Shown one piece after another: positions 137 through 41,635 of a stretch of DNA of 64,000 nt (within the stretch, counting starts at the first letter, position 1; each line of letters starts with the position of its first letter). Where the stretch lies: positions 3,148,782 to 3,212,781 of the forward strand of contig OX638353.1 in NCBI GenBank assembly GCA_951813255.1. Direction: 5' to 3'. The notes under the pieces were generated by a model, which had not been told where the DNA came from, searched no databases, and saw nothing but the letters and a program-made list of their open reading frames with translations. Origin of the DNA: an uncultured Dehalococcoidia bacterium. GTDB taxonomy: Bacteria; Chloroflexota; Dehalococcoidia; Lucifugimonadales; JAAXIE01. The translations under genes were made by a program, and so were the position numbers.

Positions 137-209
137 GTTCCCATTGTTCCCACGCTCGTAGCTGCGTTGTAGTTGTGACAGTTCCCACAATTTGTTCCCA
201 TCGTTCCCA
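137..209. repeat. five GTTCCCA direct repeats
   Basis: GTTCCCA occurs at 137-143, 146-152, 181-187, 194-200 and 203-209. Two pairs have start-to-start spacing of exactly 9 bases. This could be a cluster of regulator half-sites or an unstable simple repeat. No family is recognised. Confidence 0.6.
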
Positions 210-363
210 TTTTGGCGTGTCTCTGATTCTCAGGGCTGCACGACAGGCTTGGTATCGGGGATTTAGGAGGTTGACTTACGGATCCCTTAATGGAGATAGT
301 ACAACAGTTCTGTAACAAATAAGCAAGGGGGGCTTTGATGGGCTTGGGATGCTGAGGTTTTAG

Positions 364-392
364 TTGCGCCCCATGCTGTGTCCGCGTATACT
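364..392 (+). promoter_or_regulatory. candidate sigma70-type promoter for korAB
   Basis: TTGCGC (364-369), a 17-base spacer and TATACT (387-392) match the bacterial -35/-10 pattern well. Transcription would begin near 399 and leave a leader of about 165 bases before korA. A second TATAAT at 499-504 has no matching -35 box. Confidence 0.4.
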
Positions 393-564
393 GACTCGGT
401 GCATTCAGACACAGTCGAATTTGATCGGTACCTCCTCTAACTACGGCACTCCCCCGTTAACGCGCAGTCCACTCACCCCCAAAGGTTTAGTAGCGAGTTA
501 TAATTGTGGGCGGCTGGCGTGGGAGGCCTAGTGTGCTTTGTGGCGCCAAGGAAGGAGTGGAGGC

Positions 565-2343
565 ATGAGTTCGGGGATGTATGACTTCGCTATGGGAATA
601 GGTGGCGAGGCCGGGCAGGGTATCGCGACGCCCGGTGACATACTTGCCCGAATATTCGTCCGACGAGGCCTTCACCTCACTACGTACAACGCGTACCAGT
701 CGATTATTCGTGGCGGACATATCTTTCTGACGGTGCGCGTCAGCGACGAGAAGATATACAGCCACGGCGACAGGCTGGACCTGCTGCTGTGCCTGAACCA
801 GGACACCATGGACCGGCACCTGAACCTCATGGGACCGGGGTCGCGGGTGGTGTACAACAGCGACAACATCAAGGCGGAAGGGGCTGCCCGCGGTGTGGGC
901 CTGTGCCCGCTGCCGATTGGCGAATTGACCCAGAGCCGGAACCGGCTGGTGCAGAACACTGTGGCCGTGGGGGCCATCATGGCCCTGATGAAGCTGGATT
1001 TCGAGGTGCTGGAGGAGAGCCTTCAGCTACGTTTCCAGAGGCAGGGACAAGCGGTGGTGGACGAGAACGTCCGAGTGGCACGGGCGGGATACGACTACAC
1101 CCTGGCCAACTTCGAGCCCTTTTCCCAAGAAGTAGCCCAACTCGAGAAGCCGATGGCAGTCTGGGCTGGGAATGAGGCCATTGCCATGGGCGCGGCTGCA
1201 GCGGGCATGAAGTTTTACGCTGCTTACCCGATGAGCCCATCCAGTGGCATTCTGCACTGGATGGCCTCGAACGCCCGCAACCTGGGCATCATGGTGAGGC
1301 AGGTAGAGGACGAGATTGGCGTGGCCAACATGACCATTGGGGCGGCCCACGCGGGGTGCCGGGCCATGTGCGGGACATCGGGTGGCGGCTTTGCGCTGAT
1401 GACGGAAGCTATCGGCGCCGCTGGCATGATGGAGATACCGGTGGTGTTCGTGAACGTACAACGGGCCGGTCCCTCGACAGGCGTGCCCACGAAGACGGAG
1501 CAGGGAGACCTGTGGCAGGCGTTGGGCGCCAGCCAAGGGGACTTCCAGAGGTTGATCGTAGCGCCCACCGATGCTCTTGATGCCTTCAACACCATGCCGG
1601 AGTTGTTTAATCTCACAGACTACTATCAGTGCCCCGGCATCGTAATTTCCGACCTGCTGATCTCGGAAGGCAGGTACAGCGTCGACCCAGACGACATCGA
1701 CATGCAACCCACGATTGAACGGGGCAGCCTGATCATGGAGGGCTCGACGACAGACGGGTACAAGCGGTACGAAAACACCGAGTCGGGTATATCACCGCGC
1801 GCTTTGCCGGGTCTGGAGGGCAAGGTGCATGTGGTGGCCACGGACGAGCATGACGAGGACTCGATGCTGATCAGCGACGAGTTCACCAACCCCCACAAGC
1901 GCCGCATGATGGTGGAGAAGCGTTCCCGCAAGATGAGCGACCTGCTGGGGCGTGTGGCCCCGCCCCAGATAGAGGGCGAGGAAGACGCTGACGTGACCCT
2001 AGTGGGCTGGGGTTCCACCTATGGAACCATCAAGGAGGCCTTGGACCTTCTGGCTGTACAGGGGATCAAAGCCAACCAGTTGGCTATCAAGTGGATTGTT
2101 CCCTTCCATGGTGATGCGATTACGGACATTCTGTCCAAAGCCAAGAAGGTTATCGTTGTGGAGAACAACGAGTCGGGCCAGTTCTACCGCTACATGCGCA
2201 GTGAGACGGGCCTCTCAGTGGACGGGCATGTACGGAAGTACGACGGAGAACCTTTCGCCCCACACCACATAGTGCAGGGAGTTATCGATCTGCTGAAGGG
2301 CGAGACAGACAGGTACGTTCCCTACCAGGAAATAATGGTATAA
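565..2343 (+). CDS. korA: 2-oxoacid:ferredoxin oxidoreductase, alpha subunit (fused gamma-alpha)
   Basis: Alpha subunit of a CoA-dependent 2-oxoacid:ferredoxin oxidoreductase of the 2-oxoglutarate/branched-chain type. The enzyme oxidatively decarboxylates a 2-oxoacid to acyl-CoA and reduces ferredoxin. The N-terminal ~180 residues are the gamma-type catalytic domain (GGEAGQG near residue 13). The rest is the pyrimidine-binding alpha domain (AYPMSPSSGILHWMA), followed by a C-terminal transketolase-like domain. The start at 565 is chosen because GGAAGGAG lies just upstream; an in-frame ATG/GTG-type start at 538 lacks a Shine-Dalgarno sequence. From 565 the protein is 592 residues, usual for KorA. 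korB follows 96 bases downstream. The substrate cannot be read from sequence alone; 2-oxoglutarate is most likely. Confidence 0.93.
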   Translation: MSSGMYDFAMGIGGEAGQGIATPGDILARIFVRRGLHLTTYNAYQSIIRGGHIFLTVRVSDEKIYSHGDRLDLLLCLNQDTMDRHLNLMGPGSRVVYNSDNIKAEGAARGVGLCPLPIGELTQSRNRLVQNTVAVGAIMALMKLDFEVLEESLQLRFQRQGQAVVDENVRVARAGYDYTLANFEPFSQEVAQLEKPMAVWAGNEAIAMGAAAAGMKFYAAYPMSPSSGILHWMASNARNLGIMVRQVEDEIGVANMTIGAAHAGCRAMCGTSGGGFALMTEAIGAAGMMEIPVVFVNVQRAGPSTGVPTKTEQGDLWQALGASQGDFQRLIVAPTDALDAFNTMPELFNLTDYYQCPGIVISDLLISEGRYSVDPDDIDMQPTIERGSLIMEGSTTDGYKRYENTESGISPRALPGLEGKVHVVATDEHDEDSMLISDEFTNPHKRRMMVEKRSRKMSDLLGRVAPPQIEGEEDADVTLVGWGSTYGTIKEALDLLAVQGIKANQLAIKWIVPFHGDAITDILSKAKKVIVVENNESGQFYRYMRSETGLSVDGHVRKYDGEPFAPHHIVQGVIDLLKGETDRYVPYQEIMV

Positions 2344-2439
2344 GGAACATGTGTGGGCGTGTCCGGCTTGGACCAAGTGTGGACAACTACCGGGGCTGGC
2401 AGGGGCCGATCCCAAGCCTGAAATGAAAAAGGGGTAGCG

Positions 2440-3345
2440 ATGACGAGCGTTAACGTAGCGGGAGAAGTCCCCGAGGTGAAGCTCACCGCTCGCGATTTCA
2501 AGGGTCTGGTTGACCCGGACTGGTGCCCTGGATGTGGCGACTTCGGAGTCATCAATGGCATCCAGAGGGCCTGCGCCGAGTTGGGGCTGAGGCCGCACGA
2601 AATACTGACGGTCAGCGGTATTGGATGCTCATCAAACCTGCCTGGGTACTTCAACTCCTATGGCATGCACACACTGCACGGACGATCGCTGGCAGTTGCG
2701 ACCGGGGCCAAGATGGCCAACCACGAACTGACGGTGCTGGTCACAGGCGGTGACGGTGATGGCTACGGCATAGGTGGCAACCACTTCACCCACACGGCGC
2801 GACGCAATGTGGACCTGACCTACATTGTGATGAACAACCAGATTTACGGTTTGACGACGGGCCAGATATCCCCGACCAGCACCTTCGGCATGAAGACCAA
2901 GAGCACACCTTTTGGCAGCGTGGAGATGCCGGTGAATCCCATCACCTCGGCAATCATGAACGGGGCAACCTTCGTGTCCCGAGCGTACAGCAGCGACATC
3001 CGCCACCTGACCGACACCATCAAGAAGGCCATCACGCATAAGGGCTTCTCGCTGGTGGATGTGTTCAGCCCCTGTGTGACCTTTAATTTGGACAACACCC
3101 ATGACTTCTTCAAGGAGCATGTGCGCAAGCTGGAGGACGAGGAGCACGACACCAGCGACTGGAAGACGGCATGCGAGAAGGCGATGATGTGGGGCGACAC
3201 GATCTACACAGGTGTCTTCTTCCAGAAGAAGGAGTCCCAAGACCTTGGCGACCAAGAGCCGGTGCTGGAGGACGGGCCGCTTGCCTTCCGTCCATTGGGT
3301 CTGAGCAAGGAGCAAGGTGATCGCGTAGTGCGGCGCATGCTCTAG
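2440..3345 (+). CDS. korB: 2-oxoacid:ferredoxin oxidoreductase, beta subunit
   Basis: Thiamine-diphosphate-binding subunit that pairs with the preceding KorA. The N-terminal WCPGCGDF motif supplies conserved cysteines. The ThDP/Mg motif is GDGDGYGIGGNHFTHT, followed by the expected MNN about 13 residues later (near residue 130). The length of 301 residues is normal for the family. The gene has the same orientation as korA and is followed after 40 bases by an intrinsic terminator, so korAB is a two-gene operon. A separate ferredoxin-like delta subunit is not nearby, so electrons probably go to a ferredoxin encoded elsewhere. Confidence 0.93.
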   Translation: MTSVNVAGEVPEVKLTARDFKGLVDPDWCPGCGDFGVINGIQRACAELGLRPHEILTVSGIGCSSNLPGYFNSYGMHTLHGRSLAVATGAKMANHELTVLVTGGDGDGYGIGGNHFTHTARRNVDLTYIVMNNQIYGLTTGQISPTSTFGMKTKSTPFGSVEMPVNPITSAIMNGATFVSRAYSSDIRHLTDTIKKAITHKGFSLVDVFSPCVTFNLDNTHDFFKEHVRKLEDEEHDTSDWKTACEKAMMWGDTIYTGVFFQKKESQDLGDQEPVLEDGPLAFRPLGLSKEQGDRVVRRML

Positions 3346-3385
3346 CGGTGAGATTGGTCTGCAACTGCTCTCGCGTGGAGAGTTT

Positions 3386-3413
3386 AAGCCCCCTTCAACT
3401 CGAAGGGGGCTTT
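3386..3413 (+). terminator. intrinsic terminator after korB
   Basis: A perfect 11-base-pair stem (3386-3396 with 3402-3412) has a 5-base loop, and TTT follows. It sits 40 bases beyond the korB stop codon and ends the korAB transcript. Confidence 0.75.
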
Positions 3414-3430
3414 CGTATGGGCGTAGGTTG

Positions 3431-3799
3431 CTAGCGTCCTGGCACGTCGATGACGAACCGCCAAGTGCCGTCGGCTTGGCGACGCACGACCTCGATGCTG
3501 TTCCCGTCGTGCTCAGTCACGGTGCCGTCGGCGGCTGTATCAATTACCTTCGACTTGCAGTCCAGCACTGCGAGGTCGCCGGACTGGTGCACCAACTGGC
3601 TCTCATGCCTGAAAGTGCGGCCGCTGGCTACACCCATATCCAAGGCCTTTCGGATAGCATCTATTCCGGCAATGGTCCCGCCACCGGGCATCACCAGCAA
3701 TGCGCCGTCCTCGTAGAGGCTGGCTAGAGCCGCCACGTCGCGTGCGTTGAAGGCGTCGAAGAACTGGGTGTGAACGTCGCCGGGCTCGTGAGCTGCCAT
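3431..3799 (-). CDS. SnoaL/DUF4440-like NTF2-fold protein
   Basis: A small cone-shaped NTF2-fold protein of 122 residues. It has the typical opening helix (FFDAFNARDVAALASLYEDGALLVMP shape), the PGGGTIAGIDAIRKAL segment, and a closing strand that ends in WRFVIDVPGR. Family members are ligand-binding or small-molecule enzymes (isomerases, cyclases) or have unknown function. The start at 3799 is chosen because GGAGG precedes it by 6 bases; the longer open frame to 4036 adds only low-quality sequence and would overlap pgi. It is divergent from pgi and convergent with korB. Confidence 0.8.
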   Translation of the reverse strand: MAAHEPGDVHTQFFDAFNARDVAALASLYEDGALLVMPGGGTIAGIDAIRKALDMGVASGRTFRHESQLVHQSGDLAVLDCKSKVIDTAADGTVTEHDGNSIEVVRRQADGTWRFVIDVPGR

Positions 3800-3916
3800 G
3801 TGGTGCCTCCTGAAGTAGCCTGACTTGAGGTCGGCGTCCTGGGCGCCGGTGCCGATGATTATAATGGCGTTCGGTGTTTCTCGAAGGGGAATCATACCAG
3901 CAGGGGAGTGGCCAAC

Positions 3917-5551
3917 GTGACATTGAGGGGTCTGGGACCGGGCAGTAGTCCAGGTAGCCATGCAGGTGGAATCGAAGCCCGGCTGGGCAAGCTGGATGCT
4001 GAGGATGTGGTCTCCCGGATGTGGCGGAGAGACCATTTGGTGTGGAAGCCTGAGCCGACGGAGATTGAGGACCGGCTGGGCTGGTTAACTGTTTCGCGAG
4101 ATATGCGTGGGGAGGCGTCTGCCCTGGGGGCGTTTGGTCGCGAGGTGGGGGAGGCTGGCTACCGGCATGTGGTGCTATTGGGGATGGGAGGGAGCAGCCT
4201 TGGGCCGGAGGTGCTGCGTAGCGTTTTTGGGTCCGCTGAGGGGTATCCGGAATTGATTGTGCTGGATTCCACAGTGCCGGCTGTTGTCAGGCATGTGAGC
4301 GATGGTATTGATCCGGCCCGGACTCTCTTTCTGGTCTCATCAAAGTCGGGGAGCACTATCGAGCCCAACTGCTTGTATGCGCATTTCCGGGAGATGGTGG
4401 AGGGAGTGCGTGGAGAGCGGGCTGGGGAGAGCTTTGTGGCGGTCACGGACCCGGGCACGGTGCTGGAGAGGATGGGTACGGAGGCTGGATTCAGGCGCAC
4501 GTTTGTCAATCCGCCGGATATCGGAGGGCGGTACTCGGTGCTGTCGTATTTTGGGCTGGTGCCGGCGGCGCTGATTGGTCTGGATGTTGGGGAGTTGCTT
4601 GAGCGGGCGAATGGGATGGCTGGAGGTTGCGCAGCGGATGTGCCAGCATCACGGAATCCGGGGGCCCAGTTGGGTGCATGGATGGGTGAATTGGCGTTGC
4701 AGGGGCGTGACAAGCTCACGCTGGTGACGTCTCCATCGATCGCGAGCTTTGGGTTGTGGGTGGAGCAGTTGCTGGCGGAGAGTACGGGGAAGGAAGGGAA
4801 GGGGATCGTGCCGGTGGTGGGGGAGCCTCTGATGCTGCCGGAGGAATATGGGGATGACCGGCAGTTTGTGTACCTGCGGCTCGAGGGGGACGAGAATGGT
4901 GAGAGCGATGAGTTCGCGGATGCCCTAGCGGGTGCAGGGCATCCCATGATGCGGACCGGGTTGCGTGACCGGTATGACCTGGGGGCTGAGTTCTATCGAT
5001 GGAAGTTCGCCACTGCGATTGCCGGGGCGGTGTTGGGGATCCATCCCTTTGACCAGCCTGATGTGCAGGCGGCCAAGGATATGACGGAGGCTATGCTGGC
5101 GGGGTTGCTGGAGACGGGCCAGTTGGCTGCGCCACAAACGGAAATCCCCCCGGAAGAACTGCTAGCTGTGGTGGAGCCCGGTACGTACGTGGCGGTCCTG
5201 GCGTATTGCGGGCAGACTCCGGGACTGGACGCAGAGTTGCGTGTGCTGCGGAAGAGGATTGCGCAAGGGTATGGGGTGGTTAGCACCGTGGGATATGGGC
5301 CGCGATATCTGCATTCCACGGGGCAGTTGCATAAAGGTGGGCCTGCGTCGGGTAGGTTTCTGCTGCTTACCGCCGATGACGGGGATGATGTCTTGATACC
5401 GGGTCGTCCGTACACATTCGGGCAATTGGCGCGAACGCAGGCGCTGGGTGACTTGCAGGCATTGCAGTCTGTGGGTAGGCGTGTGACGTGGGTGCGTCTG
5501 GGTGGGGATGTGGTTGAAAGCATTCGTGAATTGGCTGGCCGGGTTTGCTGA
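3917..5551 (+). CDS. pgi: glucose-6-phosphate isomerase
   Basis: Interconverts glucose-6-phosphate and fructose-6-phosphate. Two SIS domains are visible: the first has GMGGSSLGPEVL (near residue 90), then a phosphate-binding SSKSGSTIEPN segment (near residue 142). A C-terminal domain is typical of the PGI modules found fused to transaldolase in some bacteria, but no transaldolase portion is present. The start is either GTG at 3908 or GTG at 3917; AGGGGA at 3902-3907 abuts the first and is well spaced for the second. The protein is about 544 residues. gnd follows after 30 bases, so the pair feeds glucose-6-phosphate between glycolysis and the oxidative pentose-phosphate route. Confidence 0.9.
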   Translation: MTLRGLGPGSSPGSHAGGIEARLGKLDAEDVVSRMWRRDHLVWKPEPTEIEDRLGWLTVSRDMRGEASALGAFGREVGEAGYRHVVLLGMGGSSLGPEVLRSVFGSAEGYPELIVLDSTVPAVVRHVSDGIDPARTLFLVSSKSGSTIEPNCLYAHFREMVEGVRGERAGESFVAVTDPGTVLERMGTEAGFRRTFVNPPDIGGRYSVLSYFGLVPAALIGLDVGELLERANGMAGGCAADVPASRNPGAQLGAWMGELALQGRDKLTLVTSPSIASFGLWVEQLLAESTGKEGKGIVPVVGEPLMLPEEYGDDRQFVYLRLEGDENGESDEFADALAGAGHPMMRTGLRDRYDLGAEFYRWKFATAIAGAVLGIHPFDQPDVQAAKDMTEAMLAGLLETGQLAAPQTEIPPEELLAVVEPGTYVAVLAYCGQTPGLDAELRVLRKRIAQGYGVVSTVGYGPRYLHSTGQLHKGGPASGRFLLLTADDGDDVLIPGRPYTFGQLARTQALGDLQALQSVGRRVTWVRLGGDVVESIRELAGRVC

Positions 5552-24017: not shown

Positions 24018-24340
24018 TGCGCACCTCCGGCTAGGGGTAGGTATGTCCGCTGGTAGAGGGCAGGCATTGGGAAGGATGGTAGTTGGCGGAAGATCACACG
24101 ATCCCCTTGTTCACACAAGCCTACAGTGTTTCAGCAGGTCCCATTGATGCCCGACTCGGATATGAAGACGCCCAGAGCGCTGCTGACCTTGCCGCCAAAA
24201 TCAACTCTGACTCAATAATGCGGCTAATTATGCGTCAAGTGAGGTATTTTTGCGTCAGACCTAGCTGGACCTAGGGAGAGGCTGCCGCAAGACCGGCACC
24301 GATACGATGGGGCGTATACCAGCCAAAAAGCAAGAACGGC
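24018..24340. other. intergenic region at the left edge of the accessory island
   Basis: No convincing gene. A 63-codon plus-strand frame at 24083-24274 lacks a Shine-Dalgarno sequence and any recognisable fold. The region holds one half of an imperfect direct repeat (24231-24258) that recurs beyond the tRNA-like cluster. Confidence 0.5.
24231..24258 (+). repeat. left copy of imperfect direct repeat (possible att-like)
   Basis: The 28 bases from TGCGTCAA match positions 28632-28659 at 22 of 28 positions in the same orientation. The two copies flank the small-gene, transposase and tRNA-like part of the island and the right copy precedes an integrase remnant. An attachment-site origin is an inference. 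Confidence 0.3.
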
Positions 24341-25882: not shown

Positions 25883-26671
25883 CTAGTTCTTGCTGAAGTT
25901 GGGCGTGACGCCCAGGTTGTGCATGGCCTGCACCAGCACGCAGATGTTGTGGCAGAGCACCTTTACCAGCGTCTCGTTGACTCGCGCTGTGTCCGTCTTG
26001 GCCCTGACCACGTCACCAAACTTGGCCTTTATCATGGAGAAGACTGTCTCCACGTTCGACCGCTTATGGTAGTGCTTGTTGAACTCGGCCTCATTGAGTG
26101 TAAAGTGGCGGTACATCTTCGTCCAGAGCTCGTCATTGTTGGGGCCAGAATTCTTCTTGAACGGGATGTAGGGCGTCGCCCCGGCGTCTGCTATGGCATG
26201 CAGGTTCTTCTTACTAGAGTATGCCATGTCACCTGATACCTCACGCACCTCGAAGTTTCGCCTGGTGGTCTCCACAAACTCTGGTAGATACGGCGAGTCT
26301 GCCGATTGTGATGCGGTAGCGTCTGCAACGGTAACGATGTTGCTCTTTACTCCACATATCACATGGAGCTTAGTCCACTTGGCTTCTTTCTGAGATTTGC
26401 CCCACTTGTGGTCGAACCAGCGATGGTAAGCCGTGCTGGCGAAGCCACTGGAGTCTATGGCAAAGTCCTTCTCGATCTCACGGAGAGGCATTGCACTCTG
26501 CTGGATAAGCTGACGCAAGACCGGTGTCATGTCCTCGCGGTCAAAGTAGCGTATGGTAGTGCCAAAGGCTGGCTCCACGTCCATTTGACCTTCCGCTACA
26601 GCGTCACGAACTTCTGACTGAGCCCTGCGGGTGCTACGGATACTTGCGTCATTGGCATTGCCTTCTCTCAA
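25883..26671 (-). mobile_element. DDE transposase, IS4/IS5-superfamily type, N-terminally short
   Basis: Catalytic DDE domain with the three acidic residues in FAIDSSGFAS, VSGDMAYSSKKN and HYHKRSNVETVFSMIKAKFGD. Known relatives of this group are ~350-450 residues and begin with a DNA-binding region; here the 262-residue frame starts late, at TTG 26671, just after an in-frame TAG. The region corresponding to the start of the family (about 60-100 residues) is missing. No terminal inverted repeats were found around it. It is probably a truncated or dead copy, though the catalytic residues are intact. Confidence 0.75.
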
Positions 26672-27751: not shown

Positions 27752-27834
27752 CAGGGAGTGGCGGAACGGCAGACGCGCAGGCCTGGAAATCCTGTGCCCT
27801 TCAGGGCGTGTGGGTTCGAGTCCCACCTCCCGCA
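27752..27834 (+). tRNA. type II tRNA-like gene, Leu-like body with GGA anticodon
   Basis: The sequence has a leucine-type D-arm (GCGGAACGGCAGACGC), a long variable arm (GCCC...GGGC), a perfect T-arm (GTGGG TTCGAGT CCCAC) and A73. The anticodon loop is CTGGAAA, giving GGA (Ser codons UCC/UCU). Five of seven acceptor pairs form (GGGAG/CTCCC); the first two are mismatched (C/C and A/G), as is the last anticodon-stem pair (C/U). It is either a decayed tRNA or a non-standard one. CCA is not encoded. Confidence 0.55.
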
Positions 27835-27865
27835 ATTGTGCTTCCAGGCCTAGGCTCTCACGGTG

Positions 27866-28093
27866 TCATCCCTTAGGCGGAAACGGATCGTTACCGTAGC
27901 TGTTCTTCTCCCTGATCTTGCCGTCTTTACCATGAATCACCAACTCAGTCCCTTGGCTCTTGGCTATCTCAATACCTTTGTCTATGGCTTCCTGTTGGGT
28001 CTCTGTCACGGCGGCTGCTCTGGACGCTCCGCCTTTCTTGACGGCCCACCCGTCTTTGTGAGGGACTATGTGCTGTGACGGTTTCCTAGGCAT
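27866..28093 (-). CDS. DUF2188 domain protein
   Basis: A 75-residue protein matching the DUF2188 pattern: HIVPHKDGWAVKKGGASRAA, then TQQEAIDKGIEIAKSQGTEL, then VIHGKDGKIREKNSYGNDP with the typical PFPPKG end. The function of the family is not established; members are small, common on mobile elements and in actinobacteria. AGGAGG lies 8 bases before the ATG. It lies on the opposite strand to the tRNA-like genes, between the first and second. Confidence 0.85.
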   Translation of the reverse strand: MPRKPSQHIVPHKDGWAVKKGGASRAAAVTETQQEAIDKGIEIAKSQGTELVIHGKDGKIREKNSYGNDPFPPKG

Positions 28094-28293
28094 GTGCTTA
28101 ACCTCCTATTGAATGCTGGGCACTGCATCTACGATAAGAGAGAACCTGATGCAGCACCAACTCTAGAATTTTCTATCGCGTAGCCTTTCTTCTCCTTCCC
28201 TAATCAGCAGCAAGGACTACGCATGTGTTGCGGCGCTCCTATAGTAAACTTGGGGAACCGAGGGAGTGGTAGTAGCTCCCTCAGCCCCCCAGC

Positions 28294-28366
28294 GCACTCG
28301 TAGCTCAGTGGACAGAGCGCCAGCCTGCTAAGCTGAGAGCCGTGGGTTCGAGTCCCACCGGGTGCG
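28294..28366 (+). tRNA. class I tRNA-like gene with GCT anticodon
   Basis: 73 nucleotides with standard spacing. Acceptor GCACTCG/CGGGTGC pairs throughout with one G-U; the D-stem is GCTC/GAGC and the T-arm GTGGG/CCCAC. The anticodon loop CTGCTAA has U33 and reads GCT (Ser AGC/AGU). The variable loop is only 5 nucleotides (GAGCC), whereas a bacterial tRNA-Ser has a long arm. The body resembles tRNA-Arg. One anticodon-stem pair (C27/A43) is mismatched, G73, no encoded CCA. Confidence 0.65.
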
Positions 28367-28379
28367 CAACAATTTTGCA

Positions 28380-28455
28380 TGGGCTGTAGGTTAACGGAGA
28401 GACCACCGTGCCCCTACCACGGAAGTGTGGGTTCGAATCCCCATCAGCTCCACCA
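28380..28455 (+). tRNA. tRNA-like gene with CCT anticodon, C33 and encoded CCA
   Basis: The acceptor stem pairs except T1/C72 (TGGGCTG/CAGCTCC). The D-stem is GGTT/GACC, the anticodon stem CCGTG/CACGG is perfect, and GGTTCGAATCC marks the T-arm, though two T-stem pairs fail. The anticodon loop CCCCTAC reads CCT (Arg AGG) but has C instead of the near-universal U at position 33. A73 and an encoded CCA complete the 3' end. An intrinsic terminator follows 20 bases later. Confidence 0.45.
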
Positions 28456-28474
28456 GTTAACCAACCCATGAATG

Positions 28475-28495
28475 AATTGCCTTGCGGCAATTTTT
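28475..28495 (+). terminator. intrinsic terminator after the tRNA-like genes
   Basis: The stem AATTGCC/GGCAATT with loop TTGC is followed by a run of T. The same 20-base sequence occurs inverted at 28610-28629. Confidence 0.7.
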
Positions 28496-28513
28496 GTATG
28501 TTAGGCTTCTAGA

Positions 28514-28587
28514 GGCACGGTGCCTGGCTGTCGAGACAGGGATTCAGACCGCGGCTGAATCGGGCTACCAACCTCACCGTGCTACCA
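28514..28587 (+). tRNA. reduced tRNA-like cloverleaf ending in CCA
   Basis: GGCACGG (28514-28520) pairs with CCGTGCT (28577-28583), closing three hairpins: CCTG/CAGG with a 10-base loop; a 7-base-pair GATTCAG/CTGAATC arm with 7-base loop ACCGCGG; and a weak 3-base-pair arm. A73 and CCA follow. The variable loop and normal T-arm are absent, so it resembles a minimal mitochondrial-type tRNA or a decayed gene. Because the acceptor arms are near-palindromic, strand is uncertain. Confidence 0.3.
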
Positions 28588-28609
28588 GAATTTTCTTTAT
28601 TAGGTCTCC

Positions 28610-28629
28610 AAAATTGCCGCAAGGCAATT
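28610..28629 (-). terminator. inverted copy of the 28475 terminator
   Basis: Exact reverse complement over 20 bases of 28475-28494. Read on the minus strand it is a stem AATTGCC/GGCAATT followed by TTTT, so it stops leftward transcripts. With its partner it insulates the tRNA-like sequence at 28514-28587. Confidence 0.55.
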
Positions 28630-28631
28630 AT

Positions 28632-28659
28632 TGCGTCAACTAGGGTATTATTGGGTCGG
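28632..28659 (+). repeat. right copy of imperfect direct repeat (possible att-like)
   Basis: Matches 24231-24258 at 22 of 28 positions. It lies 177 bases before the integrase remnant, as expected for an attachment site, but the match is modest. Confidence 0.3.
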
Positions 28660-28835: not shown

Positions 28836-29360
28836 TTGGCGCATAATCTCAACTTGCTGGCCAAGTCTACCACAACCAGGGGGGTCTCGCGGACATGGGT
28901 CCAGCGCCTTCGGAGTGACGGGGAGCTGGTCAATCTCGGCCTCGGCTCCTTGCCAGTGGTAACCCTTGCCTGGGCACGGGCCAACGCTAGGGCCGTGGCA
29001 CAAGGCAAGGACCCAAGAGGAGCCGTCACCACTATCCCCACTTTCCATGATGCAGTGGACAAGGTTATCGCGCTCCACCGTGCTTTCTGGAAGGATGGTG
29101 GTAAGTCGGCGGCCCAATGACAGGCCAGCCTTGATTCCAATGCAATGGCAAGGCTGGGCAACAAGCCGGTCGACCGCATTACGACTGAGAACGTTATGGC
29201 GGTGCTAACGCGCATCTAGAACGAAAAGCGGGAGATGGCTCGGCATGTGAGGCAGCGCCTCAGCGCCGTGATGAAGTGGGCTGTTGCACAAGGCTACCGT
29301 GACGACAATCGGGCTTGCGATGCCGTCGGCCGGGGAGGATGGACAACGGCATACGGAACC
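28836..29360 (+). pseudogene. P4-type phage integrase remnant (DUF4102 arm and core-binding part)
   Basis: One reading frame gives the N-terminal arm domain of a P4-like tyrosine integrase (RTWVQRLRSDGELVNLGLGS, then VTLAWARANARAVAQG) and the core-binding domain (RLGNKPVDRITTENVMAVL, QRLSAVMKWAVAQGYRDDN). It is interrupted by TGA at 29118-29120 and TAG at 29217-29219. Both stops stand where relatives have Trp. The catalytic domain is absent: similarity fades after about 29340. This is a dead integrase that probably brought in the island. Confidence 0.8.
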
Positions 29361-29509
29361 GGTTGCCATCATTACGGTGCCAAGGGCTTGTGCTAGGATT
29401 GAAGACTGATGAAGTGAGTATACTGGGGGGTGATAGTAGCTGGCACGCTTCGCTGGCCGCATACGACAGTGCGCCACACGCGCCTCAGATCGGCATTGCC
29501 CCGGTCCCG

Positions 29510-30032
29510 CCTGTGGAGCAAGAAGCTAACGCCACTCCCATTATGGGAAAGTTCCCAGACACAGTTGCAAGATCCGAGCCAGAAGTGAGGCAACTAATTC
29601 CGACGGCCACACCGGCGCCGCGGGCAAGTCTGCAGATCACCTGAACACTTGGCTTTGAGTATCTGGAAGACATGGAAGCCCACGCGGACTTCGTGGTCAT
29701 AGCGACCGTAATTGACGTGGAGTACGCTGACTACCCATCGCAGCGGAACTCCCGTGTACAGTCACGGATAAACGATGACTGGAGTCGTTCCAAAATTGGA
29801 TCCGATAACATCTTGGTCCTGCAGTTCTGCGGCAGCCCGACATACTTCGACGAGGAGTCTCCTCCCTACTTGGTAGGTGAGGAATACCTGTTGTTCCTTC
29901 GGCGTCAACGCGAGAGTAGGGGCGAGGTCAATCCCAAGTTCGCCGATCCTCCACGATACTCGGTTCTTTGCTCCCCAAGGACGCTACCTCATTGAGGATG
30001 ATAGAGTGGAGACTGTCAGTGGATATACGGTG
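29510..30032 (+). pseudogene. broken secreted/surface protein gene
   Basis: A Pro/Ala/Thr-rich segment is followed by a beta-rich domain with ADFVVIATVIDVEYAD, YLVGEEYLLFLRR and, after a frame change, APQGRYLIEDDRVETVSG, which I recognise as a recurrent extracellular domain of unknown function in Chloroflexota. A TGA at 29642-29644 interrupts the frame, and a one-base shift near 29962 is needed to continue. The 3' end fuses at about 30033 to a radical-SAM fragment, which points to a deletion joining two genes. Confidence 0.6.
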
Positions 30033-30825
30033 GAGGACGGGCCGGCGGAGAGGCTGGTCAGGTCTGGGCTGGATGCGCTGATCGTGTCGTTGGACGGGAC
30101 GACGCAGGATGTGTACGAGGTGTACCGGCTGACGGGGCACTTGGAGCGGGGTGCTGGATAACCTGAAACTCATCGCGGAGACGCGGAAGCGGTTCGGCTC
30201 GAAGACTCCGTTTTTTGGAGTGGCAATACATCGTCATGCGGCAGAACGACCATCAAGTAGAGGATGCGAAGCGGATGGCGACGGAGCTTGGGGTGGACAA
30301 CTATCACGTTCAAGCCGGTGGACTTCCCGCATGGGTCGGAGGATATCGAGCTGGCACGACAGTGGTTGCCAAGGGGCGGAGATGGAGGCACGACTGGCGA
30401 ACCCGTTCTGCAAGCCTTACGCCGAGGACGGGGCACGGTGCTGGAGGTTGTGGCGCAGTGCGGTGGTGAACTGGGACGGAGGGTATGCGCCGTGCTGCTA
30501 CCTTACGGATGCATCGGACGATTTTGGGGATGTGCGCACCCACTCAGTGAAGGAAATCTGGAACAACGAGCAATACCGAACGGCGCGGAGGTTGTTCCAG
30601 AAGTCGGGGGCTCCCAAGGAGTACGTGGGGTGCATCGGCTGCATCGTGTACGCGGACTCCAAGGCGGCCAAGTTTCACAAGGAAGCCAGCCTGCCGCAAC
30701 GCAACGGGCACAAGCCAGTGCCGAGGGTGCCGGTGATGCTGAATTTGGCGGGCAAGGACCATGCGCTTGAGGAGTTGGAGCAGCACGAAGCGAGGGCGAA
30801 GGTCCCTGCTGCTGGCGACGACTAG
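30033..30825 (+). pseudogene. radical SAM/SPASM protein remnant
   Basis: C-terminal two thirds of a radical SAM enzyme with a SPASM-type iron-sulfur region. The pieces lie in three frames: RLVRSGLDALIVSLDGTTQD, then IVMRQNDHQVEDAKRMATEL, then KPVDFPHGSEDIELARQWLP, and finally RCWRLWRSAVVNWDGGYAPC with a later CIGCIVYADSK. The CxxxCxxC that binds the catalytic cluster is missing with the N-terminus. At least three frame changes (near 30150, 30211 and 30310) make it non-functional. Confidence 0.75.
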
Positions 30826-31001: not shown

Positions 31002-33095
31002 ATGACTGAAAGCAGACCCAAGCCGCCCCTTGCGGAGAGGCGTCCCTATAGCATTACGCACCATGGAGTCACGATAGAGGACCCTTGGAACTGGCTGCGG
31101 GACCCTGCGTATCCAACGGTGGAGGACGCTGACGTTCTGGCGTACCTCACTGCGGAGAACGAGTATTTCGAGGCGGCGATGGGGCCGCACCAAGGGTTGA
31201 TCGATACGCTGTTCGAGGAGATCAAGGCGAGGCAACAGCCGGACCTGTCGAGCGTGCCTTGGCGACGGGGGGAGTGGTATTACCAGTGGAGTTACCAGGA
31301 AGGGAGTCAGTACCGGGTGTGGTCGCGGTGGCCGGCGGCGGACGCGCGCGCGCGGGAGGGGCCTACGGATAACGCGCGAACGATTTTGGATGAGCCTGCC
31401 CTAGCGGAAGGCGTGGAGTATTTCCGGCTGGGGTCCCTGTCGGTGGGCAATGGCGGGGCACTGCTGGTCTACAGCACAGATACCGATGGGTCTGAGCGGT
31501 ACAGGATGGTGGTGAAGGACCTGCGCATAGGGGAGATGCTGGGTGATGAGATTGAGGGCACGATAGGGAACGCGGTGTGGGCGGCCGATGACGCATCGTT
31601 CTTTTATACGGTGCTGGATGACAACTGGCGTCCGTGGCAGGTGCGCAGGCATACGTTGGGGCAGCCTGTGGATGAGGATGCGGTGGTGTATGAGGAGACG
31701 GACCCGGGCTTCTTCGTGGGGCTTTCGCTCACGACTTCGAGGGAGTACGTCGTTATCGGCGCGGGGGACCACGTTACTTCCGAGGTGAGGCTGATTGGGG
31801 CGTCGGAGCCGGGGGCGAGTCCGGTCTTGGTTTCGGCACGCCGGACGGGGCACGAGTATTCGGTGGACCACCAAGGGGAGCGATTCGTCATACGGACGAA
31901 CGACACGCACAAGAACGCGCGGTTGGCGACTACGCCTGTGGACGACCCCAGCGAGGGATCGTGGGTGTCACTGGTGGATGCTTCGGACGAACATTACATC
32001 ACGGGCTTCAAGGCGTTCGGGGAGTTCATTGCCGTCGAGGAGCGGGTTGAGGGTCTGGACCACATACGACTGATCGACGGAGACGGGGAGTCGTTCTACA
32101 TACCGTTCCCGGAGTCGACCTATACGGTTGGCATTGAGACGAATTTGGAGTTCCAGACAGACACGCTGCGCCTTGAGTATACGTCGATGGTGACGCCGAG
32201 CACGGTGTTCGATTATCACGTTGATACGAAAGAGCTGGAAGTACGCAAGGTGCAGCAAGTACCGAGCGGATATGAGGCGGGGGACTATGTTACGGAGCGG
32301 TTGATGGCCGTGGCGCGGGACGGGGCGCAGGTGCCTGTGTCGGTGGTGCGGCGGAGGGACACGCCGGTGGATGGAAGCGCGCCGGTGTATCTCTACGGGT
32401 ATGGGGCGTACGGGCATTCCGTACCGCCGTCGTTTTCCACTACGCGGCTGTCGCTGCTTGACCGTGGGTTCATCTTCGCCATTGCGCATATTCGCGGGGG
32501 CGATGATCTGGGGTATCACTGGTACGAGGCGGGAAAGCTGGACAGGCGGACGAACACGTTCAATGATTTCGTGGATGTTGCGCGGCATCTGGTGGAGACG
32601 GGGTATGGGTCTGAGGGACGGATCGCTATAGCGGGAGGGAGTGCCGGAGGGCAGTTGATGGGGGCTGTGGTGAACGAGGCGCGGGAACTCTGGGGAGCGG
32701 TGGCGGCGCATGTGCCATTCGTTGACGTGCTGAACACGATGCTGGATGACTCCCTGCCGCTGACGCCCATCGAGTGGCCGGAGTGGGGGAACCCAATAGA
32801 GGACAGGGATGTTTTCGAGTACATCCGGTCTTACTCGCCATATGACCAACTGACGGAAGGGGAGTACCCGCCCATTCTGGTGACGGCTGGGCTGAATGAT
32901 CCGAGGGTGACCTACTGGGAGCCGGCGAAGTATGTGGCCAAGCTGCGCACTATGAAGAGAGATGACAATTCGCTGCTACTGAAGACCAACATGGGGGCTG
33001 GTCACGGTGGCAAGTCGGGCAGGTACGACCGGCTGTATGAGGTGGCGGAGGAGTATGCGTTCATTCTGGTGAATATGGGGTTGGTGGACTCGTAG
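31002..33095 (+). CDS. ptrB: oligopeptidase B (S9A serine peptidase)
   Basis: Prolyl-oligopeptidase-family enzyme that cleaves short peptides after basic residues. The N-terminal beta-propeller domain (to ~residue 400) begins with VTIEDPWNWLRDP. The catalytic alpha/beta-hydrolase domain has the signature DLGYHWYEAGKL, the nucleophile in AGGSAGGQLMG (Ser547), Asp in AGLNDPRVTYWEP and His in GAGHGGKSGR. The acidic Glu pair expected for dibasic specificity in oligopeptidase B is plausibly in EWPEWGNP. The 697-residue length is normal and no signal peptide is present. It is convergent with the chelatase gene, 7 bases apart. Confidence 0.92.
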   Translation: MTESRPKPPLAERRPYSITHHGVTIEDPWNWLRDPAYPTVEDADVLAYLTAENEYFEAAMGPHQGLIDTLFEEIKARQQPDLSSVPWRRGEWYYQWSYQEGSQYRVWSRWPAADARAREGPTDNARTILDEPALAEGVEYFRLGSLSVGNGGALLVYSTDTDGSERYRMVVKDLRIGEMLGDEIEGTIGNAVWAADDASFFYTVLDDNWRPWQVRRHTLGQPVDEDAVVYEETDPGFFVGLSLTTSREYVVIGAGDHVTSEVRLIGASEPGASPVLVSARRTGHEYSVDHQGERFVIRTNDTHKNARLATTPVDDPSEGSWVSLVDASDEHYITGFKAFGEFIAVEERVEGLDHIRLIDGDGESFYIPFPESTYTVGIETNLEFQTDTLRLEYTSMVTPSTVFDYHVDTKELEVRKVQQVPSGYEAGDYVTERLMAVARDGAQVPVSVVRRRDTPVDGSAPVYLYGYGAYGHSVPPSFSTTRLSLLDRGFIFAIAHIRGGDDLGYHWYEAGKLDRRTNTFNDFVDVARHLVETGYGSEGRIAIAGGSAGGQLMGAVVNEARELWGAVAAHVPFVDVLNTMLDDSLPLTPIEWPEWGNPIEDRDVFEYIRSYSPYDQLTEGEYPPILVTAGLNDPRVTYWEPAKYVAKLRTMKRDDNSLLLKTNMGAGHGGKSGRYDRLYEVAEEYAFILVNMGLVDS

Positions 33096-41073: not shown

Positions 41074-41145
41074 CTGGTTTGCTACCGGATTGGCGGGTAA
41101 CGCCAAAGGGGCCGTTCTGTTGTGCGCAGAAGCAGAGCACCTCAA

Positions 41146-41290
41146 CCCGGGCAGGTTTCCTGACTTACGAGCTATTGACTCTGTCAATGCCCGATCACAG
41201 TGGCGCAACCGTGGCGGAATCTCACCGCCTTCCCCTATGTTGCCGTAGTGGCATACCGGGTGGGCCGAATCGGTTGTTAAAGGGCGCCTC
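41146..41290 (-). promoter_or_regulatory. cobalamin riboswitch controlling cbiE-cobN-cbtBA-chelatase
   Basis: Minus-strand aptamer with the expected core blocks in order: GGGGAAGGCGGTGAGATTCC, GCGCCACTGTGATC, and the B12 box AGTCAGGAAACCTGCC (complement of 41150-41165). Adenosylcobalamin binding would favour termination at 41040-41073 and shut down the leftward operon. Confidence 0.88.
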
Positions 41291-41367: not shown

Positions 41368-41389
41368 CGCGCCAAAATTTAGGCCAACC

Positions 41390-41560
41390 CTACCGGCGCC
41401 CCCGACAAACGGGGGTGAACAGGGAAAGCGGTGAGAATCCGCTGCGGAGGTGCCACTGTAACCGGCGAGCCGCCCGCTGAGGCCACTGTCCCGAAAGGGA
41501 TGGGAAGGCGCGGGAGAGGCGAAGACCCGGGAGCCAGGAGACCTGCCGGGCAGGGCTGAG
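41390..41560 (+). promoter_or_regulatory. cobalamin riboswitch controlling btuC and downstream cob genes
   Basis: Plus-strand aptamer with the core blocks CAGGGAAAGCGGTGAGAATC, GGTGCCACTGTAACC and the B12 box GCCAGGAGACCTGCC (41532-41546), plus the optional long peripheral arm between them. It precedes the btuCFD-cob operon by about 110 bases. Confidence 0.93.
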
Positions 41561-41635
41561 CGGTCGCTCTTCTACCCAGGGAGTGCCTCAGGCGGCGGCC
41601 AGGCTGCCTCGATGAGAGGCAAAGCCGAACCATCC

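What the first reader, a model, noticed from the sequence alone, without database searches (positions are those of the whole stretch)
27752..28587. A cluster of four atypical tRNA-like genes inside an accessory island
Within 840 bases there are four plus-strand tRNA-like sequences, none with a normal set of features: one Leu-like with a GGA anticodon, one class I tRNA with a GCT anticodon, one with C33 and CCT, and one reduced CCA-ended cloverleaf. Two share an identical 17-base T-arm, and CCA is encoded in the last two only. The cluster sits beside a dead integrase, as in mobile tRNA arrays. If expressed, these could misread or recode codons for the element; otherwise they are a decaying array.
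Basis: partly seen in the sequence, partly recalled or inferred. Interest (0 to 1): 0.72.

Follow-up and report, generated by a model that had tools for sequence, protein, structure and literature searches.

The report
Decaying tRNA relics in mobile island
Three spare transfer-RNA genes (not four) sit in the wreck of a mobile element in a bacterial chromosome; two are structurally broken and the third is well formed but its anticodon no longer matches its body, so together they look like mutated leftovers rather than a new way of reading the genetic code.

Summary
Three of the four sequences are tRNA-like by ARAGORN and Rfam: 27752-27834, 28294-28366 and 28380-28455. The fourth (about 28507-28590) is a stable hairpin with no tRNA match. 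It lies between two exactly complementary 20-base copies of an intrinsic terminator. The three tRNAs are supernumerary: the host has canonical Ser-GGA, Ser-GCT and Arg-CCT genes.

In each, the anticodon disagrees with the body: a Leu body reads Ser (GGA), an Arg body reads Ser (GCT), and an Ala-like acceptor (G3:U70) reads Arg (CCT). The first and third are the two lowest-scoring tRNAs in the genome, with broken pairs or an inserted base. Only the second is well formed.

The setting is a low-GC island with a P4-type integrase relic (two in-frame stops, no catalytic domain), a transposase and a DUF2188 gene. No relative in 250 genomes of the order or 400 of the phylum carries the second tRNA's signature. 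In viral contigs such class I GCT tRNAs are no commoner than unused-anticodon controls, and only 16 of 33 fold intact, against 115 of 121 for Arg-TCT.

Best reading: remnants of tRNA cargo of a dead mobile element, drifting. A rare mistranslating tRNA is not excluded for the second gene, but is unlikely.

The parts
27752..27834 (+). tRNA 1: class II, Leu body, Ser anticodon GGA; pairs 1-72, 2-71 and 31-39 broken; no encoded CCA
   Evidence: ARAGORN; Rfam 37.5 bits with mismatches marked; nearest relatives are Leu-TAA tRNAs of the order; loop and stems
28294..28366 (+). tRNA 2: class I, Arg(TCT)-like body, Ser anticodon GCT, A20 and G73 present, only pair 27-43 (C/A) open; followed by CAA, not CCA
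   Evidence: ARAGORN; Rfam 66.9 bits; nearest relatives Arg-TCT tRNAs of the order
28380..28455 (+). tRNA 3: anticodon CCT with C33, T1/C72 mismatch, one extra base in the T loop, Ala-like acceptor stem with G3:U70 and CCA
   Evidence: ARAGORN; Rfam 42.2 bits; 3' end matches host Ala-TGC; D arm of a kind seen in phage tRNAs
28474..28493 (+). intrinsic-terminator-like hairpin after tRNA 3
   Evidence: 2 found, 1.2 expected by shuffling; sequence GAATTGCCTTGCGGCAATTT + TTGT
   Evidence: no tRNA match; fold z -2.9 (+) and -3.5 (-); no relatives except short patches
28610..28629 (-). exact inverted copy of the terminator palindrome
   Evidence: I2, 20 of 20 complementary to 28475-28494; the 20-mer occurs nowhere else in the genome
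27866..28093 (-). intact 75-aa DUF2188 gene between tRNA 1 and tRNA 2
   Evidence: Pfam PF09954 E 5e-25; found in 2 of 147 genomes of the order
28836..29393 (+). P4-type tyrosine integrase relic: arm-binding and central domains, in-frame TGA at 29118 and TAG at 29217, no catalytic domain
   Evidence: translation; Phage_int_M E 1.8e-19 and Arm-DNA-bind_3 E 3.6e-4; stops
25883..26671 (-). DDE transposase (IS) in the same island
   Evidence: PF01609 E 1.1e-19
24226..24257 (+). left copy of a possible 31-base imperfect direct repeat bounding the island
   Evidence: local alignment score 18 with 28626-28657, best of 500 shuffles 15
28626..28657 (+). right copy of that possible direct repeat, upstream of the integrase relic

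Best explanation
The cluster is what is left of tRNA genes carried by an integrative element that no longer moves. The element brought extra tRNA genes (a Leu-TAA-like, an Arg-TCT-like and a third with an Ala-type acceptor stem). The host already has every isoacceptor, so selection on the copies was relaxed and they drifted. Anticodon changes turned two of them into nominal Ser tRNAs and one into a nominal Arg tRNA, and stems broke in two. tRNAs 2 and 3, 12 bases apart and followed by a terminator, are probably the remains of one transcription unit. The fourth sequence is a hairpin tied to the duplicated terminator, not a tRNA. Shown: three tRNA-like genes, their pairing defects, supernumerary status, dead integrase, accessory context and absence from relatives. 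Inferred: mobile-element origin of the tRNAs themselves, relaxed selection, and no present function.
For: A canonical set is present elsewhere in the genome, including class II Ser-GGA and Ser-GCT and Arg-CCT. tRNAs 1 and 3 are the two lowest-scoring of 53 tRNA matches. Specific defects: 1-72, 2-71 and 31-39 open in tRNA 1; T1/C72, C33 and an extra T-loop base in tRNA 3. GC falls from about 0.61 to 0.50-0.57 over 24-30 kb. The integrase has two stops and no catalytic domain; transposase; DUF2188 gene in 2 of 147 genomes. The tRNA 2 signature is found in this genome only, in 250 of the order and 400 of the phylum. Class I GCT tRNAs in viral contigs number 10, against 9 for the unused anticodon ACT, 9 for three Ser UCN anticodons together, and at least 120 for normal TCT. 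Stem intactness is 16/33 for class I GCT against 115/121 for TCT (Fisher P 3e-9, and 4/9 against 115/121 within viral contigs, P 2e-4).
Against: tRNA 2 has all arms paired except 27-43 and a mid-range score, so decay is not visible there apart from the anticodon. tRNAs 2 and 3 keep tandem spacing and a terminator. All three anticodons disagree with the body in a way the relevant synthetase would probably tolerate (Leu and Ala do not use the anticodon; Arg keeps A20, C35, U36, G73), which pure decay does not require. The intactness control mixes collections: most GCT cases are from GTDB genomes, the TCT cases from viral contigs. No close relative was held, so the ancestral state could not be read directly.
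Confidence: 0.77

Rival explanations
1. Functional dual-identity tRNAs. At least tRNA 2 is charged with Arg by the host ArgRS and inserts Arg at AGC/AGU Ser codons (and, if expressed, tRNA 1 puts Leu at UCC/UCU and tRNA 3 Ala at AGG), giving regulated mistranslation, comparable to Streptomyces tRNA-ProX.
For: Arg identity elements A20, C35, U36, G73 are all in tRNA 2, which lacks the long variable arm expected of a bacterial tRNA-Ser; bacterial Arg, Leu and Ala identity sets as tabulated in PMC9976931. tRNA 2 scores 66.9 bits. A non-U33 base occurs in known mistranslating tRNAs (PMC11415595) and in tRNA 3.
Against: No conservation in order or phylum; sporadic and often broken elsewhere; no synthetase gene found among the island genes tested; tRNAs 1 and 3 damaged; no promoter-like site found, though that scan covers only sigma-70 type.
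Confidence: 0.07
2. Anti-defence decoys or replacements: mobile-element tRNAs with altered anticodon loops that escape host anticodon nucleases.
For: Phage tRNAs with anticodon-loop mutations have been proposed to do this (PMC10264068); tRNA 3 has a deviant loop CCCCTAC; its D arm is of a kind seen in phage tRNAs.
Against: A replacement tRNA must still decode its own amino acid's codons; here the anticodon itself is changed away from the body in all three. Broken acceptor and T stems in two. The element is dead, so any such role is past.
Confidence: 0.06
3. Attachment-site remnants: the tRNA-like sequences arose from repeated integration at tRNA 3' ends, the usual target of P4-type integrases.
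For: tRNA 3's last ~27 bases match the 3' end of host Ala-TGC except one extra base and lie about 380 bases upstream of the integrase relic.
Against: All three have full 5' halves, tRNA 3 matching Ala at the 5' acceptor strand too; no partial tRNA copy was found at the left side of the island; the candidate flanking direct repeat (24226-24257 and 28626-28657) is not tRNA sequence.
Confidence: 0.06
4. Assembly or base-calling error creates the oddities (indel in tRNA 3's T loop, frameshifts nearby).
For: The genome is a single contig of unknown platform; the extra base in tRNA 3 is in a C run (CCC to CCCC); the SPASM gene at 30.0-30.8 kb is frame-broken.
Against: Substitutions (C33, T1, anticodons, 1-72 and 2-71 of tRNA 1) are not homopolymer errors; nearby chromosomal genes are long and intact, e.g. 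697 aa at 31002.
Confidence: 0.04

Closest known systems
Mobile-element and phage tRNA genes / tRNA array units (PMC5966550, PMC6409571)
   Same: tRNA genes clustered in a horizontally acquired region beside integrase remains, redundant with host isoacceptors; density 3 tRNAs in about 0.7 kb
   Different: Only three tRNAs; the definition needs at least 20; damaged; the element is dead
tRNA-ProX of Streptomyces and other dual-identity bacterial tRNAs (PMC11415595)
   Same: Body of one amino acid with anticodon of another; one member also lacks U33
   Different: No conservation across species, no dedicated synthetase alongside, C33 rather than A33, two of three with broken stems
nev-tRNAs of nematodes (PMC4300185)
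   Same: Redundant tRNAs whose anticodon and identity disagree; those are leucylated in vitro and mature in vivo yet cause no detectable mistranslation
   Different: nev-tRNAs are conserved and eukaryotic, with a V-arm on Gly/Ile-anticodon tRNAs; here the anticodon is changed on Leu and Arg bodies
4-bp anticodon-stem tRNAs of bacteria (PMC13092985)
   Same: tRNA 2 has an open 27-43 pair, leaving a 4-bp anticodon stem
   Different: The proposed effect concerns CNN anticodons reading NNA codons; this one is GCT
Allo-tRNAs (reviewed in PMC7609411; acceptor/T-branch details partly from own knowledge)
   Same: Unusual tRNAs found in genomic surveys, with Ser anticodons among them
   Different: Those have 8/4 or 9/3 acceptor/T branches; here the branches are the normal 7/5

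Membership tests
bacterial tRNA gene (RF00005) | score over the curated cut-off | tested here: met
   three of four sequences at 37.5, 66.9, 42.2 bits against 29; the fourth has none even at E 5
tRNA array unit | at least 20 tRNA genes | tested here: not met
   3 tRNAs; definition PMC5966550
tRNA array unit | at least 2 tRNAs per kb | tested here: met
   3 in 704 bases
cargo of an integrative mobile element | integrase gene or relic adjacent and accessory distribution | tested here: met
   integrase relic; GC; transposase; DUF2188 gene in 2 of 147 genomes
dual-identity (mistranslating) tRNA | identity elements of one amino acid with anticodon of another | tested here: met
   by sequence only: nearest relatives Leu, Arg, Ala against anticodons Ser, Ser, Arg (identity sets PMC9976931)
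dual-identity (mistranslating) tRNA | conserved across species | tested here: not met
   signature of tRNA 2 in own genome only: 1 of 250 and 1 of 400
dual-identity (mistranslating) tRNA | dedicated synthetase nearby (as for tRNA-ProX) | tested here: not met
   no synthetase domain in the island genes tested
dual-identity (mistranslating) tRNA | aminoacylated and used by the ribosome | not testable with these tools
   needs tRNA sequencing, charging assay and proteomics
allo-tRNA | 8/4 or 9/3 acceptor/T branch | tested here: not met
   7-position acceptor and 5-position T stem in the alignments

The most novel reading that the evidence does not exclude
tRNA 2 is expressed and charged with Arg, so the host statistically misreads AGC/AGU Ser codons as Arg: a mobile-element-borne mistranslating tRNA outside Actinomycetes, with no dedicated synthetase.
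Probability: 0.05. Interest if true: 0.65.

Novelty: new member of a known kind. Interest (0 to 1): 0.2.

Why it matters
If only relics, it is a clean example of how redundant, mobile-element tRNA genes lose stems and drift to mismatched anticodons. The survey here gives a background rate: about two dozen class I GCT sites in roughly 85,000 species' genomes, and about half of all such tRNAs examined broken. Claims of natural recoding tRNAs can be judged against that. If tRNA 2 were active, it would be a rare natural case of tRNA-driven Ser-to-Arg mistranslation.

Tried and rejected
A recurring class I GCT tRNA family: tested by counting illegitimate anticodons in viral contigs, in GTDB genomes and by stem intactness; not enriched and often broken. 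A recurring Leu body with Ser anticodon: 14 viral contigs matched, but several look like tRNA-Leu(UAA) interrupted after the wobble base by a group I intron (recognised by eye), leaving a few scattered cases. A homologous cluster in relatives, phages or plasmids: only single-tRNA matches. The fourth sequence as a tRNA on either strand: no match, and no meaningful relative. It was also compared by eye with integron attC core sites: only one half-site (GTTAGGC) fits, so rejected. Shared T-arm and absent CCA as signals: both ordinary in this genome. Island context for two other odd host tRNAs (L044, L046): no Pfam domains found around them, inconclusive.

Full report
What is there. ARAGORN finds three plus-strand tRNAs in the stretch: 27752-27834 (GGA), 28294-28367 (GCT) and 28380-28455 (CCT). 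Rfam's tRNA model agrees at 37.5, 66.9 and 42.2 bits. The fourth sequence is not a tRNA: neither program reports it, and Rfam gives nothing there even at E up to 5 except chance-level matches. It is a long hairpin, about 28507-28590, folding better than shuffles on either strand (z -2.9 and -3.5). It is framed by two exactly complementary 20-base palindromes, 28475-28494 and 28610-28629. The first of these is a good intrinsic terminator directly after the third tRNA. Neither the hairpin nor the 20-mer recurs in the genome, and relatives share only short patches.

Anatomy of the three tRNAs. tRNA 1 has a class II Leu body; its nearest relatives are Leu-TAA tRNAs of the order, 87-89% identical over the core. 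Its loop is CTGGAAA (GGA), and pairs 1-72, 2-71 and 31-39 are open. tRNA 2 is class I; its nearest relatives are Arg-TCT tRNAs, about 84% identical, so one change at position 34 would give GCT. All stems pair except 27-43. tRNA 3 has loop CCCCTAC (C33, CCT), a T1/C72 mismatch and one extra base in the T loop. Its acceptor stem carries G3:U70, and its 3' end matches the host Ala-TGC gene. Its D arm (TAGGTTAACGG..AGACC) is of a kind found in phage tRNAs of many isotypes. By the bacterial identity sets reviewed in PMC9976931, tRNA 2 keeps the Arg set (A20, C35, U36, G73), tRNA 1 the Leu discriminator A73 with a large variable region, and tRNA 3 the Ala G3:U70. In all three, therefore, anticodon and body disagree. 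This is inference from sequence; charging was not tested.

Ordinary features. The host has a full canonical set, including class II Ser-GGA and Ser-GCT and an Arg-CCT, so the three are supernumerary. The identical T-arm of tRNAs 1 and 2 also occurs in host Leu-TAA. Several canonical host tRNAs (Lys-TTT, Val-GAC, Phe, Thr-TGT) lack encoded CCA.

Setting. GC falls from about 0.61 to 0.50-0.57 between 24 and 30 kb. Inside are a DDE transposase, an intact DUF2188 gene between tRNAs 1 and 2 found in only 2 of 147 genomes of the order, and a P4-type integrase relic. The relic has Phage_int_M at E 1.8e-19, in-frame TGA and TAG stops, and no catalytic domain. A 31-base imperfect direct repeat at 24226-24257 and 28626-28657 scores 18 against a best of 15 in 500 shuffles and may mark element ends; this is suggestive only. 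The island is flanked by an alpha/beta hydrolase gene and a prolyl oligopeptidase gene.

Function or decay. tRNAs 1 and 3 are the two lowest-scoring of 53 tRNA matches in the genome, while tRNA 2 is mid-range. The tRNA 2 signature (class I, A20, GCT) occurs in this genome only, among 250 genomes of the order and 400 of the phylum. In IMG/VR the class I GCT pattern is found in 10 stretches, against 9 for ACT (an anticodon bacteria do not normally use), 9 for three Ser UCN anticodons together, and at least 120 for normal Arg-TCT. In GTDB genomes, 23 stretches match among about 85,000 species, scattered over many phyla. Of 33 distinct class I GCT cases, 16 have intact stems, against 115 of 121 TCT cases (Fisher P 3e-9, and P 2e-4 within viral contigs alone). 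The larger comparison mixes collections, so the second figure is the fairer one. Such tRNAs thus look like sporadic mutants rather than a maintained class. Leu bodies with Ser anticodons are likewise rare and scattered.

Mechanism most likely. A now-dead integrative element brought redundant tRNA genes. With host isoacceptors present, the copies drifted: anticodons changed, and stems broke in two of the three. tRNAs 2 and 3, 12 bases apart and ahead of a terminator, are probably the rest of one transcription unit. I put this at 0.77. The mistranslation reading (0.07) survives only for tRNA 2. The known parallel is tRNA-ProX of Streptomyces, which is conserved and comes with its own synthetase (PMC11415595). 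Nematode nev-tRNAs show that mature identity-mismatched tRNAs need not cause detectable mistranslation (PMC4300185). Anti-nuclease tRNAs (PMC10264068) and attachment-site origin fit less well.

Known kinds. By definition this is not a tRNA array unit: 3 tRNAs against a minimum of 20 (PMC5966550). It is a new, ordinary member of the known kind 'mobile-element tRNA genes and their relics'.

Noticed in passing
window 28252-28292: Strong hairpin (GAGGGAG/CTCCCTC core, fold z -3.8) ending just upstream of tRNA 2; role unknown, possibly a second terminator-like or repeat element.
   Followed up: partly
window 41133-41275 (-) and 41377-41565 (+): Two divergent cobalamin riboswitches back to back, 57.7 and 104.1 bits, about 100 bases apart.
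   Followed up: no
L044 (G000:C1:1626912-1626975) and L046 (G000:C1:2125203-2125274): Two more odd host tRNAs: an Ile-TAT with no matching acceptor stem and a Met-CAT near-copy of the gene in L003 with a broken acceptor; likely further tRNA relics.
   Followed up: partly
L090 (IMGVR_UViG_3300005535_000017) around 140-4640: Large phage tRNA array with class-switched tRNAs: Leu-TAG and Leu-CAA with short variable loops and an Ile-TAT with a long variable arm; L088 has a similar long-armed Ile-TAT and L092/L094 short-looped Leu tRNAs.
   Followed up: no
L276 (from about base 744) and L281 (from about base 1525): Leu-like tRNA with Ser anticodon GGA and an apparently 9-bp acceptor stem (GGGCACCTA/TAGGTGCCC), in two viral contigs; resembles allo-tRNAs.
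   Followed up: no
L278, L280, L282: Three viral contigs with the same tRNA carrying an apparent 4-base anticodon (tgga by ARAGORN) near a tRNA called Pyl (cta) and an Ala tRNA.
   Followed up: no
L250 and L254 (JAUIBA010000005.1): Two Arg-like tRNA genes in one Bacteroidia contig with an insertion of roughly 20 bases in the anticodon arm just after the anticodon loop (CTGCTAACCT.CCTGCCGG.AGGCAGG), like a short palindromic repeat.
   Followed up: no
window 30000-30825: SPASM-domain (radical SAM-like) gene broken by several frameshifts at the right edge of the island; pseudogene or sequencing indels.
   Followed up: partly
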